Made by a program: the position numbers and the translations under genes | Assembly (NCBI GenBank): GCA_017617575.1 | Contig: JAFZVY010000020.1 | Coordinates: 1 to 39,036, forward strand | Reading direction: 5' to 3' | DNA length: 39,036 nucleotides | Source of the DNA: Bacteroidaceae bacterium | GTDB lineage: Bacteria; Bacteroidota; Bacteroidia; Bacteroidales; Bacteroidaceae | Notes under the pieces: generated by a model | Database searches by the model: none | What the model was told of the DNA's origin: nothing | What the model saw: only the letters and a program-made list of their open reading frames with translations | Shown: positions 26,895 to 34,812 of the stretch, one piece after another | Position numbering within the stretch: position 1 is the stretch's first letter | Layout of the letters: every line of letters starts with the position of its first letter

Positions 26895-28219
26895 TCGTTA
26901 TTTGCTTTTGCCTTTGCAGCCAACTCCTTCAACTTATCCTTGCCCTTGAAGGCAAATACCCATACAAAGAAGCATGCTACTGCCAACAGGGTGATACCCA
27001 ACAAAGGACGATAGAACAGCCAAGCGAGTGCAATGACTATGAGCGACCATACAATACCGATGACGGTACAAACCACGCCAACGCCCCATCCAAAGATGCC
27101 AGCGATGAAAGGAACGACCTTGAGTATTGCCTCAATGAATCCGAGTATGCCCCTCAAACCTCCTATGACGAGCATGACACCTATCACACGGATAATCCAG
27201 AGCCACATAGAGTTAGCGTCATGCTCCGACTCAAAGATGTCACCAGCATCCTTCTTGCCCATCACAAGTGTCTGGAAACGCTTGCCATTGCCTGCCTTGT
27301 AAGGCTTGAACGTATCGCCATCAACCTCAGATATGATAGTGACCTTGGCAGGAACAATCTTCTCGAATGTCACGCGAATATCACCAACCTCTGGTGAACC
27401 AGGCACACGTCCATAGTACAACACATTACCTGCCTGATGCACGTACTCAAAGTCCTTCTTGTTGTCAGCACTTGCCATGGCAGCGTGAATGGAATCTTCC
27501 GAAGCCTTGACAGAATCAGGTACGGCAACAGTCTGTGCTGGTTGTTCCACAGTCTTCTTCACGCCATAGAAACGCTCATAGGCAACCTTTGCACTATTGT
27601 TGATTTGCTCAAGCGTGTTGTCGCTAATTGCCAAATCCATGCTTTCCCTTGAAGAGATGCTATGAATAAGGCTCTCATTAAGTCTGTAAGCACCAAAGGT
27701 AACATTCTCTGCCCATAGGTCTGCATCCTCCACGGTAGTAAGGACAAAGTTCTTTGAGCGATAAGCCTCATCCTTGAACTCACTTGAGTTGACAGGCTCA
27801 GACACCCACTCCTTGGAATACGTGTAAGTGGTAGTAGTAACCTCCTTACCGCCTAACTTATCCTCGGAATTGCTCTCTGAGTGTTCTACCCACTGGTAGT
27901 ACTCCACCTTGCGCTGAAGCGAGATGGCCTTTGCACCTATGCCATACTGCTGGTCGATAAGTGAATCCTCAGTAGTGGCAACAGCCGTTGCGCACACCAA
28001 CTCACCATCGAGAGTTGCATCCTTCTTGTTTGGATTCTCCATCTCGACATAGGCATTCTCTGCCTCGTCAAGCATCTTGTCTGTTTTCACGGCACGTCCC
28101 TCATTCCACCACAGCAATGCTGTAGCACCGAAGAAGAGAAGGAAACCTGTACCAATACCCTTGAAGGAACGACCTACGCGCGTTCCATAACCTGTTGTTT
28201 TAACTTCTTGATAAGCCAT
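26891..28219 (-). CDS. TMEM43 family membrane protein
   Basis: The 442-residue protein matches the TMEM43/LUMA family. It has an N-terminal membrane segment (GIGTGFLLFFGATALLWWNEGRA, about residues 20-42, with the conserved WWNEGRA end). A large extracytoplasmic domain follows (about 45-330; VEYYQWVEHSES, RVPGSPEVGDIRVTFEKI). Three C-terminal membrane segments (about 340-430) come next, with a lysine-rich end. Bacterial members are of unknown function. It is first in the operon with the secreted protein and the membrane AAA+ ATPase, suggesting a common envelope role. No promoter was recognised between it and the 9-nt CTAG array about 90 bp upstream. Confidence 0.88.
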   Translation of the reverse strand: MAYQEVKTTGYGTRVGRSFKGIGTGFLLFFGATALLWWNEGRAVKTDKMLDEAENAYVEMENPNKKDATLDGELVCATAVATTEDSLIDQQYGIGAKAISLQRKVEYYQWVEHSESNSEDKLGGKEVTTTTYTYSKEWVSEPVNSSEFKDEAYRSKNFVLTTVEDADLWAENVTFGAYRLNESLIHSISSRESMDLAISDNTLEQINNSAKVAYERFYGVKKTVEQPAQTVAVPDSVKASEDSIHAAMASADNKKDFEYVHQAGNVLYYGRVPGSPEVGDIRVTFEKIVPAKVTIISEVDGDTFKPYKAGNGKRFQTLVMGKKDAGDIFESEHDANSMWLWIIRVIGVMLVIGGLRGILGFIEAILKVVPFIAGIFGWGVGVVCTVIGIVWSLIVIALAWLFYRPLLGITLLAVACFFVWVFAFKGKDKLKELAAKAKANNE

Positions 28220-28306
28220 TTTTTCAATTAATTATTTTATTATATTTTGGAAAGATTTTATCTAAAGCTTTTTGAGGTTTTAGTTTTTTTGAGGTTTTGC
28301 AGAGGA

Positions 28307-28423
28307 CTAGGCTGACTAGAAAGTCTATATGTTCTAGTCTGTCTAGAAAAGCTAGTCTATATAGAAGTTCTATAGAGCCTAGAAGCCCTAGAGAGTATAG
28401 AATATCTAGAGCATCTAGACATA
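28307..28423. repeat. CTAG array: 13 units at exact 9-nt pitch
   Basis: CTAG or a one-base variant occurs every 9 nt: starts 28307, 28316, 28325, 28334, 28343, 28352, 28361, 28370, 28379, 28388, 28397, 28406 and 28415. Nine are CTAG, two CTAT, two ATAG. The other five bases of each unit vary. It lies between the TMEM43 gene and the cytidylyltransferase gene, upstream of the former. A 29-nt repeat (28448-28476) follows. Confidence 0.85.
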
Positions 28424-31137: not shown

Positions 31138-31875
31138 ATGAAAAAATATATATATTTTCTCTTTCCTCTGCTCACTTTTTTAGGATGTAAGGAAAATGTA
31201 GGATGGAGCGGAATGGAATTTGTAAAGGTTCAGGACAGCATACAGGCACCATACGACATCGCTATCGACATGGAGTTTGCCAACGGCAAGAACCCAGAAC
31301 GCCAAAAGGTGGCAAACATCATAAACGCAAAACTACAGGACACGTTTCTTGAAAGAGTAGATACAGCCAATCTTCCTTCGTCCCTGAAGGAATACATCAA
31401 CAAGCTTTGTGACACATACAAGATGGAGGATGAGGAGCTTCACCTCAACCGCTTCGACCACCTATCAGGTCACTTTGAATATGGACTGAACGGCGTCATC
31501 AACTATATACTTACGGAAGATTATTTCGGCGGCGGCGCTCACCCTACGAGCAACACCACAATACTTTGTTTCAACGAGGACACTGGCGACCTCATCACCA
31601 CAGACAAACTGGTGGTGGATAGTTGCCGTCACAAGTTGATGGACAAGCTCACTCTCCGACTAATGGAGAACGTGGGTGCTCCTACCCTCGATTCACTCCA
31701 TGCCATCGGCTATCTTGACATGAGCGATATGTTCATTTCCGACAACATCAAGCTCGGAACTGATTCCATATCTTTCTTCTACAATCCATACGACATCGCT
31801 CCGTATGCACTCGGTAGCACTACCATTTCCTTTGCATACGATGAACTCAAAGGAATCATAATAATTAATAACTAA
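31138..31875 (+). CDS. DUF3298 (RsiV-like) putative lipoprotein
   Basis: The 245-residue protein begins MKKYIYFLFPLLTFLGC, a lipoprotein signal peptide with lipobox FLGC. The body resembles DUF3298/DUF4163 (RsiV C-terminal-like) proteins: a helical N-terminal part, then NYILTEDYFGGGAHPTSNTTI, the family's GGAHP motif, with CFNEDTGDLITTDKLV and a C-terminal SISFFYNPYDIAPYALGSTT. The start is the ATG at 31138; a TTG just before it was ignored. The last 46 or so codons are duplicated at 33477-33618, on the far side of the DUF1016 gene. The copy belonging to this intact gene differs from the distal one by successive synonymous changes, so this gene's end was probably supplied by the inserted cassette. 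Confidence 0.8.
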   Translation: MKKYIYFLFPLLTFLGCKENVGWSGMEFVKVQDSIQAPYDIAIDMEFANGKNPERQKVANIINAKLQDTFLERVDTANLPSSLKEYINKLCDTYKMEDEELHLNRFDHLSGHFEYGLNGVINYILTEDYFGGGAHPTSNTTILCFNEDTGDLITTDKLVVDSCRHKLMDKLTLRLMENVGAPTLDSLHAIGYLDMSDMFISDNIKLGTDSISFFYNPYDIAPYALGSTTISFAYDELKGIIIINN

Positions 31876-31879
31876 CAAG

Positions 31880-31958
31880 CAATTAACAATTAACAATTAA
31901 TAATTAACAACTAAGCGAAGCGGTCTCACTGACCGTAGGGAAGTAATTAACATGCATA
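31880..31958. repeat. Composite repeat, copy 3 (partial)
   Basis: TTAACAATTAATAATTAAC runs, then TAAGCGAAGCGGTC-TCACT-GACCG, AGGGAAGTA, and ACATGCATA. These are the same modules as the udk-flanking repeats in a slightly different order, without the CTCTGTG part. Confidence 0.65.
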
Positions 31959-32054
31959 TCCCCTGAATGGAGTTCTTCCATTTGGGGAGTTATGAGTTAT
32001 GGGGTATGAGCCAGCTTAACTTTTAATTTTTAACTTTTAACTCCGCAAGGCGGG

Positions 32055-32098
32055 CCAGTACGTAGCCGAACGGACTGGCAGTTCGTCGCCTACGTACT
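32055..32098. repeat. Four-unit 11-nt array forming a hairpin
   Basis: CCAGTACGTAG, CCGAACGGACT, GGCAGTTCGTC and GCCTACGTACT are four consecutive 11-nt units closely resembling units of the array at 38878-38965. AGTACGTAG (32057-32065) and CTACGTACT (32090-32098) form a hairpin with an inner GAAC/GTTC pair. It lies in the leader of the DUF1016 gene; the rest of 31959-32272 shows no gene. Confidence 0.65.
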
Positions 32099-32272
32099 CA
32101 GACAAAGAAACGAGAATACAACTCAAAAACTTTTAGTGGACACAAATAATGCCGAGATATGTGCGTATTAACATGCCACTTCAATATGCGATAGTAAATC
32201 AAAAAAATCTCAAAATGACGCATAAAAAGTATTTAGGACAGCTCATACCAGCTAAGATATGGAGATTTTTTT

Positions 32273-32280
32273 TATCTTTG
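32273..32280 (+). promoter_or_regulatory. Possible -7 box of the DUF1016 gene
   Basis: TATCTTTG matches TAnnTTTG and lies 18 bp before the ATG at 32299, which would give a very short leader of about 10 nt. No good -33 box is seen. Confidence 0.4.
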
Positions 32281-32298
32281 TGCTCAAAATGAGTGCAC

Positions 32299-33330
32299 AT
32301 GAAAAAAGAAGATACATCTTTACAAGTTCAGCAATTGGATACACTATATAGTGATGTCCGCAAAATCATAGAAACTTCACGCAATAATGCGGTGCGTAGT
32401 GTCGATTTCTGTCGTGTACAGATGTATTGGCACTTAGGACAACGTATATTCGAGGAAGAACAGCACGGAAAGGAGCGTGCTGACTATGGAGCATATCTCA
32501 TCAAGACCCTTGCCAAGCGTCTGGAACCTGAATTCGGAAGCGGATTTGGAGTACGACAATTGGAGCAAAGTCGTCAGTTTTATCGAACATATCCAATTGC
32601 GAACACACTGCGTTCGCAATTGAACTGGAGTCAATACAGAAAACTAATTCAAATAGATGACCCAGACAAGAGAGAATACTACGAATTAGAGTCTGTCAAT
32701 AACGCATGGACTGCACGCGAAACAGAAAGGCAAATCAATTCCATGCTCTATGAACGTCTGTTGATGAGCAACGACAAGGAGAGTGTGCTTGCTGTGGCTC
32801 GTAAGGAACGTATTCCTGAAAGTCCGACAGAAATCATCAAAGACCCTATGGTTCTGGAATTTCTTGGACTTCATAGGGAGAGTAGCTATTACGAGAAGGA
32901 TTTGGAATCTGCAATCATTACTCATCTGACAGATTTTCTCCTTGAAATGGGCAAAGGATTCTCTTTCGTTGCGCGTCAGAAGCGTATCCTGCTCGAAGAC
33001 GATGAGTTTTTTGCAGATCTTGTTTTCTACAACCGCCTGTTGCGTTGCCATGTCGTCATCGAGTTGAAAACAGGAAAACTGACACATCAGGATTTAGGTC
33101 AACTACAAATGTATGTCAATTACTATGACCGTAATGAGAAACTTCCAGATGAGAATCCGACCATTGGAATACTCCTTTGTACGGAGAAAAATGATACGGT
33201 TGTACGTATGACATTACCAGAGGACAGTCAAAACATTTTGGCAAGCGAGTACAAATTGTATCTTCCATCGTCAGAGCAACTTATTGAAGAAATCAATGAG
33301 GTAAAGAAATTGGCACAAAAGAAAGAATAG
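32299..33330 (+). CDS. DUF1016 (YhcG) PD-(D/E)XK nuclease
   Basis: The 343-residue protein belongs to the DUF1016/YhcG family of putative nucleases. The N-terminal half (about 1-160) is the helical DUF1016_N domain (YWHLGQRIFEEEQHGKERADYG, FGVRQLEQSRQFYRTYP, LNWSQYRKLI). The C-terminal half (about 180-335) is the PD-(D/E)XK fold: RQKRILLEDDEFFADLVFYN with Asp 240, then VVIELKTGK with Glu 255 and Lys 257, and Gln 268 in GQLQMYVNYYD. All likely catalytic residues are present. A GTG two codons upstream is possible; the ATG at 32299 is preferred. The gene is richer in A/T-ending codons than its neighbours and sits inside the duplicated gene-end structure, both signs of transfer. Members are widespread and linked by others to mobile DNA; the reaction here is unproven. 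Confidence 0.9.
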   Translation: MKKEDTSLQVQQLDTLYSDVRKIIETSRNNAVRSVDFCRVQMYWHLGQRIFEEEQHGKERADYGAYLIKTLAKRLEPEFGSGFGVRQLEQSRQFYRTYPIANTLRSQLNWSQYRKLIQIDDPDKREYYELESVNNAWTARETERQINSMLYERLLMSNDKESVLAVARKERIPESPTEIIKDPMVLEFLGLHRESSYYEKDLESAIITHLTDFLLEMGKGFSFVARQKRILLEDDEFFADLVFYNRLLRCHVVIELKTGKLTHQDLGQLQMYVNYYDRNEKLPDENPTIGILLCTEKNDTVVRMTLPEDSQNILASEYKLYLPSSEQLIEEINEVKKLAQKKE

Positions 33331-33412
33331 AAAAGTAACATATTTCCATCTAACAGCCAAAAGGAAAGACGAAAAATTAGTATGGTGTGTGGCTGACCAT
33401 AAAGAGAATACA

Positions 33413-33455
33413 ACGAGAGGCAAGCGCATCTAAGCACTTGCCTCTCGTATTTATT
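33413..33455 (+). terminator. Terminator of the DUF1016 gene
   Basis: ACGAGAGGCAAG (33413-33424) pairs perfectly over 12 bp with CTTGCCTCTCGT (33437-33448), followed by ATTTATTA, an imperfect T tract. It ends just before the duplicated gene end. Confidence 0.75.
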
Positions 33456-33476
33456 ACACCAGTTCAGGATATATAA

Positions 33477-33618
33477 TTCCGACAACATCAAGCTCGGAAC
33501 TGATTCCATATCTTTCTTCTACAATCCATACGACATCGCTCCGTATGCACTCGGTAGCACAACCATTTCCTTTGCATACGACGAACTGAAGGGGATAATC
33601 ATTCTTAACGAAAACTAA
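33477..33618 (+). pseudogene. Orphan 3' end of the DUF3298 gene
   Basis: This 142-bp fragment encodes the last 46 residues or so of the DUF3298 protein in frame (DNIKLGTDSISFFYN through DELKGIIILNEN) but has no start. It is identical to the intact gene for 84 nt and then carries synonymous changes ACA, GAC, CTG, AAG, GGG, ATA, ATC, ATT against ACT, GAT, CTC, AAA, GGA, ATC, ATA, ATA. Its stop codon overlaps the stop of the convergent pectate lyase gene, which suggests this is the original gene end and the one upstream is the newcomer. Confidence 0.85.
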
Positions 33619-34601
33619 TAAGAATTATTCACCACTCTTTCCGCTGAGTTTCCCAGCCATGAATAGCCATTTCGGCGTTCATAGCCTATATCTTCTATTC
33701 GTTTTCTTGGTATTCCGTCCCTGTCACAGAAGAATGGTTCTTCCGTTTCAAGGTCATAGTAACGTGCCCATAACAATGGAGCATTAGGTCTGTCAACAAG
33801 ACGGATGTCATATCTGCCGTCCTCAAGTTGGTAACGCTCTACAGCCTTACCATGGATGGCATGAGCTTCCAACCATTCCACGGCACAACGGATAGAGTTT
33901 CTCACTTCCTCAGAAGGATTAGGGATGCTTTTCAACAAAAGCACAATATCCACCGTCTCGCCATGCCCCGTGAGACTTGCAAGCTCAAATGCACGCGCCG
34001 GAGCAGGTAGGAGTGTCACCTCATCATGCTGCTGACACCATACGGTAGGCTTACCATTCTTGCGTACCTGACACGCCAAGATACAATCCACTCCCCTATT
34101 GAATGCAGCCATGGCACGTTTCCTCAACGACCGTCCAATATGCAAAGAAGAATACGCTTCCTTATTCTGCGCCACATCACAAAGAAGGAGCATGACATTC
34201 ACCATAGCATTATCATTGAAGGTAATCCTTGACGAATACTTGGCATCTTTCCTCGCAGGAAAGAACTGAGGCCATCCACCATTATCGTATTGCATATCCA
34301 AGAGATAATGCAATCCACGAATGAAAGCATCACGATAACGCTTATCGTGCGTCTCCGCATACGCCCCTGCAAGCACCTTCATCTCCGTGGTAGTAGCACC
34401 ATTGTCTATGGTAGAGCCAATGCCAGTCTTCATACACTTATTCATGTATGCTGCATCAACACCTTTCAGCCAGTCTTGGTTCTTAACCCAACCACCAGAC
34501 GGCATCTGATACTTGACAATGGAATCAGCAAGCGCCACGTTCTGTGCCTTCACCAATTGAAACGGAAGGGACATCAACAATATGAAAGGAACTATTTTCA
34601 T
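33615..34601 (-). CDS. pelA: Secreted pectate lyase, PL10 family
   Basis: The 328-residue enzyme has a signal peptide (MKIVPFILLMSLPFQLVKAQ) and matches polysaccharide lyase family 10 pectate lyases, which cleave polygalacturonate by beta-elimination with calcium. Recognisable motifs are YQMPSGGWVKNQDW, STIDNGATTTEM, YDNGGWPQFFPARKDAKYSS, TFNDNAMVNVM, WCQQHDEVTL and the C-terminal ARYYDLETEEPFFCDRDG. Length is normal. It is presumably periplasmic or exported. It is convergent with the DUF3298 remnant, the two stop codons overlapping. Confidence 0.92.
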   Translation of the reverse strand: MKIVPFILLMSLPFQLVKAQNVALADSIVKYQMPSGGWVKNQDWLKGVDAAYMNKCMKTGIGSTIDNGATTTEMKVLAGAYAETHDKRYRDAFIRGLHYLLDMQYDNGGWPQFFPARKDAKYSSRITFNDNAMVNVMLLLCDVAQNKEAYSSLHIGRSLRKRAMAAFNRGVDCILACQVRKNGKPTVWCQQHDEVTLLPAPARAFELASLTGHGETVDIVLLLKSIPNPSEEVRNSIRCAVEWLEAHAIHGKAVERYQLEDGRYDIRLVDRPNAPLLWARYYDLETEEPFFCDRDGIPRKRIEDIGYERRNGYSWLGNSAERVVNNSY

Positions 34602-34628
34602 TCTGCTTTTTTCAATGAGTATTTTTGA

Positions 34629-34795
34629 AACACAGAGAGCACAGAGAACACAGAGTTTTTATTCTTAGTTATCAGATTTATTTAGAGTTCACGGAGGTCG
34701 CTTGTGCTCCGTGTAGCTCTCAGAACAAACTCGCTGAGACGACAAGTTACTTTGCTTTTTCCGAACGGCTCTGTGTTCTCTGTGCTCTCTGCGTT
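34629..34795. repeat. Inverted CACAGAG array element, long core (9-nt pitch)
   Basis: Left units AACACAGAG, AGCACAGAG, AACACAGAG (34629-34655); right units CTCTGTGTT, CTCTGTGCT, CTCTGCGTT (34769-34795). The 113-nt core contains a further CACGGAG/CTCCGTG pair. It lies between the permease gene and the start of pelA and fills that gap. Confidence 0.75.
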
Positions 34796-34812
34796 TAAGA
34801 GATAACCAATTT

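What the first reader, a model, noticed from the sequence alone, without database searches (positions are those of the whole stretch)
31737..33618. Nuclease cassette that seems to enter a gene end and rebuild it with a recoded tail
The DUF1016 (YhcG) PD-(D/E)XK nuclease gene lies between two copies of the 3' end of the preceding DUF3298 lipoprotein gene. 31737-31820 equals 33477-33560 exactly (84 nt). The next eight differences (31821, 31842, 31848, 31851, 31854, 31857, 31860, 31863 in the first copy) all fall at third codon positions and are all synonymous, so both ends were kept under selection in different lineages before being joined here. The orphan end overlaps the stop of convergent pelA, so it is probably the native end, and the end now used by the intact gene came with the nuclease. 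This is what a circle or linear donor carrying a gene-end homology arm and a nuclease would leave. No integrase is present, so the nuclease itself is the candidate driver (homing-like selfish gene). Insertion with long target duplication is known for restriction-modification genes; I know of no such report for DUF1016, though I cannot search.
Basis: partly seen in the sequence, partly recalled or inferred. Interest (0 to 1): 0.88.

Follow-up and report, generated by a model that had tools for sequence, protein, structure and literature searches.

The report
Duplicated gene end around passenger nuclease
A bacterial gene has two copies of its own end, one on each side of a DNA-cutting enzyme gene, most likely because foreign DNA was joined in by matching sequence on one side and a sloppy join on the other, with the enzyme gene along as a passenger.

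Summary
In detail: 31737-31820 and 33477-33560 are identical and the next eight differences are synonymous. The two ends come from two alleles. The orphan end is the native one (relatives G013 and G027 have the gene next to pelA, nothing inserted); the end now used belongs to a G019-like allele. Sister genome G019 has the same intergenic insert without nuclease and without a recognisable second gene end, so the nuclease is nested in it, between 11-bp direct repeats that are single in G019. The nuclease segment is a scrap of a type I restriction locus: a 27-codon relic of a tyrosine recombinase, then DUF1016 (PADLOC PDC-S02). Best model: homologous crossover at about 31820/31821 and illegitimate join at 33476/33477. 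Of 180 DUF1016 genes 25 have flanking direct repeats (3 of 576 displaced windows), but Fic (5 of 42) and RhuM (4 of 69) genes do so at rates not significantly different, and close relatives of the nuclease sit in unrelated places. The duplication is a general footprint of gene acquisition, known for restriction-modification genes and as homology-facilitated illegitimate recombination. The homing-like reading is not supported.

The parts
31138..31875 (+). DUF3298 gene, intact copy, with the end now used (…LKGIIIINN*)
31737..31820 (+). 84-nt repeat, copy 1; recipient-type sequence, 74% identical to G019
31821..31875 (+). imported gene tail, G019-like
   Evidence: agrees with G019 at 6 of 9 differences to copy 2; same protein end
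31876..32122 (.). left part of the intergenic spacer shared with G019 (31890-31998 is 106/109 identical); holds a repeat found many times in the genome
32112..32122 (.). left copy of the 11-bp direct repeat GAGAATACAAC
32158..32238 (+). relic of the last 27 codons of a tyrosine recombinase gene
   Evidence: tblastn E 1e-11, 74% identity to residues 304-330 of the L431 integrase; integrase profile PF00589 (L432)
32299..33330 (+). DUF1016/YhcG PD-(D/E)XK nuclease gene, open reading frame intact; PADLOC PDC-S02
33401..33469 (.). right part of the spacer with a hairpin (CGAGAGGCAAG…CTTGCCTCTCG) followed by T-rich sequence; 67 of 69 identical to G019
33404..33414 (.). right copy of the 11-bp direct repeat
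33470..33476 (.). right junction of the import with recipient sequence
33477..33560 (+). 84-nt repeat, copy 2
33561..33618 (+). orphan native gene end (…LKGIIILNEN*)
   Evidence: compare G013 and G027
33615..34601 (-). convergent pectic acid lyase gene (pelA); its stop overlaps the orphan end

Best explanation
The locus records a one-sided homologous import. A recipient whose DUF3298 gene ran straight into pelA took up DNA from a G019-like relative, in which the same gene has a different end followed by a spacer with repeats and a terminator-like hairpin. In that donor, or later, the spacer also received a 1.29-kb scrap of a type I restriction locus (integrase tail + DUF1016 nuclease). The left end recombined by homology inside the gene at about 31820/31821. 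The right end was joined with little or no homology to recipient sequence 84 nt upstream of that crossover (33477). This duplicates 84 nt of the recipient, gives the intact gene the donor's end and strands the native end beside pelA. The nuclease is a passenger. Shown: exact duplication, two-allele tails, empty sites in relatives, nuclease-free spacer in G019, 11-bp repeats single in G019, integrase relic. Inferred: the order of events, the donor, the illegitimate nature of the right join.
For: Identity to G019 falls .92.89.85.79.74 along the gene to 31820, then is .83 in the tail, 106/109 over 31890-31998.82 over 31999-32122 and 67/69 over 33401-33469. The copies differ at 0 of 84 nt before and 9 of 48 after 31821, which fits recipient DNA duplicated on the left and two alleles on the right. 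G013: gene end and pelA align with the window orphan end and pelA in one unbroken alignment (33478-34532). G019 has spacer but no nuclease. Patches of 95-100% identity between the two genomes nearby (27987-28346) suggest DNA exchange. Fic and RhuM genes show comparable flanking repeats, as expected if the cargo is a passenger.
Against: No genome with the proposed donor structure (G019-like end + spacer + nuclease, no orphan) was found; the family search at E <= 1e-75 found the gene only in the own genome and G019 (2 of 399). The contig is from a draft genome (162 contigs, 86% complete), so an assembly error at the 84-nt repeat cannot be excluded. The sequence following the spacer in G019 weakly resembles the gene end (anchored p 0.0045; unanchored p 0.205), which could mean an older, decayed duplication there. 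The spacer piece 31999-32122 is only .82 like G019.
Confidence: 0.66

Rival explanations
1. Homing-like selfish gene: the DUF1016 nuclease cuts the uninterrupted gene end and repair copies the cassette, with its gene-end arm, into the break.
For: The nuclease frame is intact and matches YhcG_C. 25 of 180 DUF1016 genes have a direct repeat across them against 3 of 576 displaced windows, and several repeats are gene ends. The excess over RhuM alone is p 0.08.
Against: G019 has the spacer without nuclease. Fic 5 of 42 and RhuM 4 of 69; DUF1016 against both together p 0.19, against Fic p 1.0. Close relatives lie beside hsdM-type, HSP70, Vsr, pyruvyl transferase, hsdS-type, AlkZ-related and Fic genes: no shared target. 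In L171 the repeat across the next gene (an AlbA_2 protein) is DUF1016's own tail.
Confidence: 0.07
2. Old vertical structure: the common ancestor with G019 already had gene + spacer + orphan end; G019 lost the orphan end and lacks the nuclease, and gene conversion made the 84 nt identical in the window.
For: Same spacer at the same place in G019; weak resemblance of the following sequence to the gene end (anchored p 0.0045).
Against: The orphan end is undecayed: 9 synonymous and 1 nonsynonymous codon differences in 44 codons. The non-coding spacer is 97% like G019 in two pieces where the gene is 74-92%. Divergence from G019 extends left of the 84 nt (31601-31736.79), which conversion from the orphan copy cannot explain.
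Confidence: 0.14
3. Circle integration: an excised circle carrying the gene end, spacer and nuclease entered by one crossover in the gene end.
For: Topology (direct repeats around the insert) is that of a circle integrated by one crossover.
Against: Predicts allele differences on both sides of the crossover; observed 0 of 84 and 9 of 48. Needs a donor that is recipient-like for 84 nt and G019-like after. No intact integrase in the segment (only a relic).
Confidence: 0.08
4. Assembly chimera of strain variants around the 84-nt shared sequence.
For: Draft genome, 162 contigs, 86% complete, 3.3% contamination; no reads available here.
Against: The junction of spacer and gene end at 33476/33477 must itself exist in reads, and similar repeats occur at other DUF1016 loci from other assemblies.
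Confidence: 0.05

Closest known systems
Insertion with long target duplication of restriction-modification genes (Nobusato et al. 2000, seen only as a reference in PMC3031569; idea read in passages of PMC3031569)
   Same: A mobile restriction-type gene lies between long direct copies of target sequence; relatives have an empty site with one copy.
   Different: A lone DUF1016 nuclease, no methylase; beyond the 84 nt the two copies are different alleles, so one end came with the insert; the nuclease is nested in an older spacer.
Homology-facilitated illegitimate recombination (abstract of PMC3240628 in the listing; passages of PMC5361080)
   Same: Homologous exchange at one end, illegitimate joining at the other; PMC5361080 uses it to explain effector-immunity modules that shift the old immunity gene and, in one step, an effector 3' end downstream.
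   Different: Here the illegitimate end joins upstream of the crossover, so recipient sequence is duplicated; inferred from sequence, not observed.
Variable segments flanked by direct repeats (PMC2884548, section 10 read)
   Same: 10-18% of variable segments in alignments of three species have flanking direct repeats, similar in size to 25 of 180 here.
   Different: Most of those repeats are under 30 bp and the definitions differ, so the rates are only roughly comparable.
Phase-variable type I restriction loci with a tyrosine recombinase (name recalled)
   Same: L432 has the integrase next to a Methylase_S (hsdS-type) gene; L430 has integrase then DUF1016. The window segment looks like a piece of such a locus.
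   Different: Only 27 integrase codons remain before the window nuclease; the neighbours in the window are not restriction genes.

Membership tests
Insertion with long target duplication | Long direct repeat flanks the inserted gene | tested here: met
   84 nt exact
Insertion with long target duplication | Related genome has the empty site with one copy | tested here: met
   G013 and G027, species-level relatives only, no strain of the same species
Insertion with long target duplication | Both copies are target sequence | tested here: inconclusive
   Met for 84 nt; beyond them the left copy is a second allele
Insertion with long target duplication | Insert is a restriction-modification system | tested here: not met
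   One nuclease gene; the ORFs between the copies include no other frame of 140 aa or more, and Pfam gives only DUF1016/YhcG for the long one
Homology-facilitated illegitimate recombination | One junction by homologous exchange | tested here: met
   Allele switch inside the gene at 31820/31821
Homology-facilitated illegitimate recombination | Other junction without long homology | tested here: inconclusive
   Only short patches at 33470-33490 against G019; true donor not known
Homing endonuclease gene | Close relatives occupy the same target | tested here: not met
   Different neighbours in the relatives examined (13 loci; 8 neighbour proteins profiled)
Homing endonuclease gene | Cleaves the uninterrupted site | not testable with these tools
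   Needs an assay
Integrase-driven cassette or element | Intact integrase | tested here: not met
   Only a 27-codon relic at 32158-32238
Integrase-driven cassette or element | Conserved ends of the unit | tested here: not met
   L101 and L184 keep other extents of the integrase; homology to L101 stops at the gene end, 33323
Transposon | Terminal inverted repeats, transposase, short target repeat | tested here: inconclusive
   No inverted pair of 20 nt or more at the ends; no transposase profile in the long frame; 11-bp direct repeats present, single in G019

The most novel reading that the evidence does not exclude
DUF1016/PDC-S02 nucleases actively promote their own one-sided capture: by cutting, or by binding broken ends, they favour joining of their flanking DNA into gene termini beside a homologous arm. 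This would explain why gene ends (DUF3298, hsdM-type, hsdR-type, RmuC, ABC transporter) recur as duplicated flanks, with Fic and other restriction-locus passengers riding the same process.
Probability: 0.07. Interest if true: 0.75.

Novelty: new member of a known kind. Interest (0 to 1): 0.35.

Why it matters
It gives a base-resolved example of how a gene's end can be swapped for another allele's end while foreign genes enter beside it, with both source alleles still readable. The survey shows that direct repeats around lone mobile genes (DUF1016, Fic, RhuM) are roughly 15 to 30 times commoner than around displaced stretches of DUF1016 loci, so they can be used to find gene acquisitions and their empty sites. 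It argues against reading such repeats by themselves as evidence of nuclease homing.

Tried and rejected
Rejected: chance repeat (84 nt exact); nuclease-specific duplication (Fic and RhuM controls); a fixed cassette with conserved ends (nucleotide homology of relatives to the window stops within the gene, except L101 on the left and the integrase tails); a conserved leader RNA before the nuclease (no Rfam match at gathering score; fold z-score 0.05): it is the integrase relic.

Led nowhere: E. coli K-12 yhcG shows one family of short repeats (27 nt, four copies; I read them as palindromic by eye) and no gene-end repeat; its locus varies between strains. DUF1016 relatives occur on 413 of 72,556 plasmid records and 13 of 50,697 phage records, all below 80% identity, so none is a close donor. 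The family search for the DUF3298 gene at E <= 1e-75 found the own genome and G019 only (2 of 399). Whole-genus search for the G019 spacer found its repeats in 9 of 45 genomes, but the whole spacer only in G019 and, in pieces, in the window.

Weak points of the survey: 199 nonredundant DUF1016 genes (of 214 found) are those in loci I fetched, not all in those genomes; 180 had 500 nt on both sides. The window is one of the 25 hits (24 of 179 without it). L191 and L192 are near-twins. Some hits look like repeat families or terminators rather than target duplications (L161, L139, L144, judged by eye). RhuM: 69 of 70 loci tested, 3 of 70 ORFs not confirmed by phmmer. Fic: 50 loci fetched, 44 with a frame, 42 tested, 3 of 44 not confirmed. 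Protein-level test: at its own threshold (score 42) DUF1016 16 of 170, RhuM 5 of 69, Fic 4 of 40, other ORFs of the same loci 22 of 358; counted by hand at score 55 or more, 11, 2, 4 and 9. At least L132 and L258 appear in both the DUF1016 and the 'other ORF' lists. DUF1016 against other ORFs at score 55 is p 0.047, against Fic + RhuM p 0.80.
Full report
Observation. The two copies are real and exact over 84 nt (31737-31820 and 33477-33560). The next eight differences are synonymous and the ninth is Ile/Leu. The upstream gene is DUF3298, the gene between is DUF1016_N + YhcG_C, and the convergent neighbour is a pectic acid lyase. The window is contig C85 of a draft genome of 162 contigs, 86% complete.

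Relatives at the same place. All 45 genomes of the genus have some DUF3298 relative, but besides the own genome only G019, G013 and G027 carry a close one (91, 76 and 65% protein identity; the next is 49% or less). In G013 the gene end and pelA align to window 33478-34532 in one unbroken alignment, and in G027 the pelA homology starts about 85 nt after the gene. Their ends (…LKGIINFSNGNE*, …LKDIITFGNNNK*) are of the long type of the orphan end (…LKGIIILNEN*); the end now used (…LKGIIIINN*) is identical in protein to that of G019.

G019. It has the same gene end, then a spacer homologous to window 31880-32122 and 33401-33469, then other sequence and pelA. It has no nuclease there and no recognisable second gene end. 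In the window the nuclease segment lies between two copies of GAGAATACAAC (32112-32122 and 33404-33414); 1292 nt separate their ends. G019 has one copy, with one base changed. The nuclease segment was therefore put into, or lost from, a spacer that exists without it; which of the two cannot be decided here.

Two sources. Identity of the window to G019 is .92.89.85.79 and .74 in successive pieces of the gene up to 31820, then .83 in the tail, 106/109 over 31890-31998.82 over 31999-32122 and 67/69 over 33401-33469. Nearby, 60-nt bins of the two genomes range from 57 to 100%, with a patch of 95-100% at 27987-28346, so DNA exchange between these lineages is likely. At the nine differences between the copies the end now used agrees with G019 six times, the orphan once, neither twice. 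The simplest reading is recipient sequence up to 31820 and G019-like sequence after it.

Why not a circle. One crossover of a circle would leave allele differences on both sides of the crossover. The copies differ at 0 of 84 nt before 31821 and at 9 of 48 after it. This fits a linear donor, homologous on the left, whose right end was joined to the recipient 84 nt upstream of the crossover. The right junction shows only a weak resemblance to the corresponding G019 sequence (anchored p 0.0045, whole stretch p 0.205); this could be the patch that guided the join or a decayed gene end in G019.

Origin of the nuclease segment. About 140 nt before the nuclease are shared with L101 from 32159 on and with four of the 398 other family genomes searched, from about 32157 on. 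In those four this DNA overlaps the 3' end of a 330-aa tyrosine recombinase gene (PF00589 in L432). In L432 the next gene is of the hsdS type (Methylase_S); in L430 the next is a DUF1016 protein, followed by a frame that I take for hsdS from memory; the neighbour in L433 gave no Pfam match. In the window, residues 304-330 remain at 32158-32238, up to 74% identical, best E 1e-11. Of 199 DUF1016 loci, three (window, L101, L184) have such a piece within 700 nt upstream, with different extents. So the segment looks like a scrap of a type I restriction locus without fixed ends.

Is the duplication a habit of DUF1016? I collected 199 nonredundant DUF1016 genes; 180 had 500 nt on both sides. A direct repeat of at least 50 bits across the gene occurs in 25 of 180, against 3 of 576 displaced windows in the same loci and 1 of 180 in inverted orientation (recounted; Fisher p 1e-13). 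Several are coding ends: N6_Mtase (hsdM-type) tails in L171 and L259, an HSDR_N start in L258, an RmuC stretch in L182, an AAA-ATPase/PDDEXK_9 tail in L226, an ABC-transporter tail in L081, and an hsdS-like start in L132 (name recalled). Over seven pairs scored, codon differences are 25 synonymous to 8 nonsynonymous in 149 codons; two more pairs (L258, L159) dropped out because the script could not place both copies. Two-allele ends are thus not unique to the window.

Controls. The same test gives 5 of 42 for Fic and 4 of 69 for RhuM genes of the same bacterial family; DUF1016 against both p 0.19, against Fic p 1.0, against RhuM p 0.08; Fic + RhuM against displaced windows p 8e-6. Protein-level gene-terminus test at score 55 or more, counted: DUF1016 11 of 170, Fic 4 of 40, RhuM 2 of 69, other ORFs of the same loci 9 of 358. 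In L171 DUF1016's own tail is repeated across the following AlbA_2 gene. A published survey found direct repeats at 10-18% of variable segments in three species (PMC2884548, section 10 read). The footprint therefore seems to belong to lone acquired genes in general. Close relatives of the nuclease sit beside N6_Mtase, HSP70, Vsr, pyruvyl transferase, Methylase_S, AlkZ-related and Fic genes, so there is no shared target.

Function. The nuclease matches PADLOC's PDC-S02 models, best E 4e-143: a candidate single-gene phage defence. That label says what it resembles, not what was tested. No defence test was made here.

Literature. 'DUF1016' occurs in 10 held papers, of which I saw listing and abstract beginnings; 'YhcG' with 'nuclease' in 8, likewise; 'PDDEXK nuclease domain-containing' with 'homing' in none. 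I saw nothing there about gene-end duplication, but did not read those papers. 'Long target duplication' occurs in 19; passages of PMC3031569 describe it for restriction-modification systems. Homology-facilitated illegitimate recombination is summarised in the abstract of PMC3240628 (listing; 49 papers hold the term, 20 listed) and proposed in passages of PMC5361080.

Verdict. A true and well-read observation, ordinary in its likely mechanism, with an informative two-allele record. A driver role of the nuclease is not supported by the controls, though a modest excess over RhuM is not excluded.

Noticed in passing
window 31890-31945: A repeat of about 60-70 nt with a small hairpin (CGGTC…GACCG) and AT-rich flanks; search with 31868-32122 gave 51 matches in the own genome, most of them to this repeat, and it is also frequent in G019 and found in G013. 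In the window and G019 it supplies the stop of the DUF3298 gene region.
   Followed up: partly
own genome G000:C142:15658-15765 (in L071): A 36-codon remnant 83% identical to residues 97-132 of the window nuclease, lying next to a CACAGAG…-type repeat like that at window 34620-34804 (by eye).
   Followed up: partly
window 34620-34655 and 34769-34804: Inverted pair of 36 nt, 89% complementary, around a 113-nt gap between pelA and the next gene.
   Followed up: no
window 27987-28346: Patch 95-100% identical to G019 amid 63-93% identity, a likely recent exchange between the two lineages.
   Followed up: no
L162:3662-8267: A DUF1016 gene and a following gene (Bro/KilA-like by memory) stand between what look like mraY and murD (names recalled), with a 36-nt duplicated stretch read in frame at both ends of the nuclease.
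   Followed up: partly
L171:1950-6733: Nested duplications: the N6_Mtase tail repeats across DUF1016, and the DUF1016 tail repeats across the next (AlbA_2) gene.
   Followed up: partly
L430 (G066:C59): Tyrosine recombinase gene followed by a DUF1016 gene and a frame that looks like hsdS, a possible source arrangement for the window segment.
   Followed up: partly
E. coli yhcG locus (L428:7828-8955): Coverage of the K-12 yhcG region varies between complete E. coli genomes: 1028 of 5426 cover 80% or more; some listed rows cover only the part from nanQ on.
   Followed up: no
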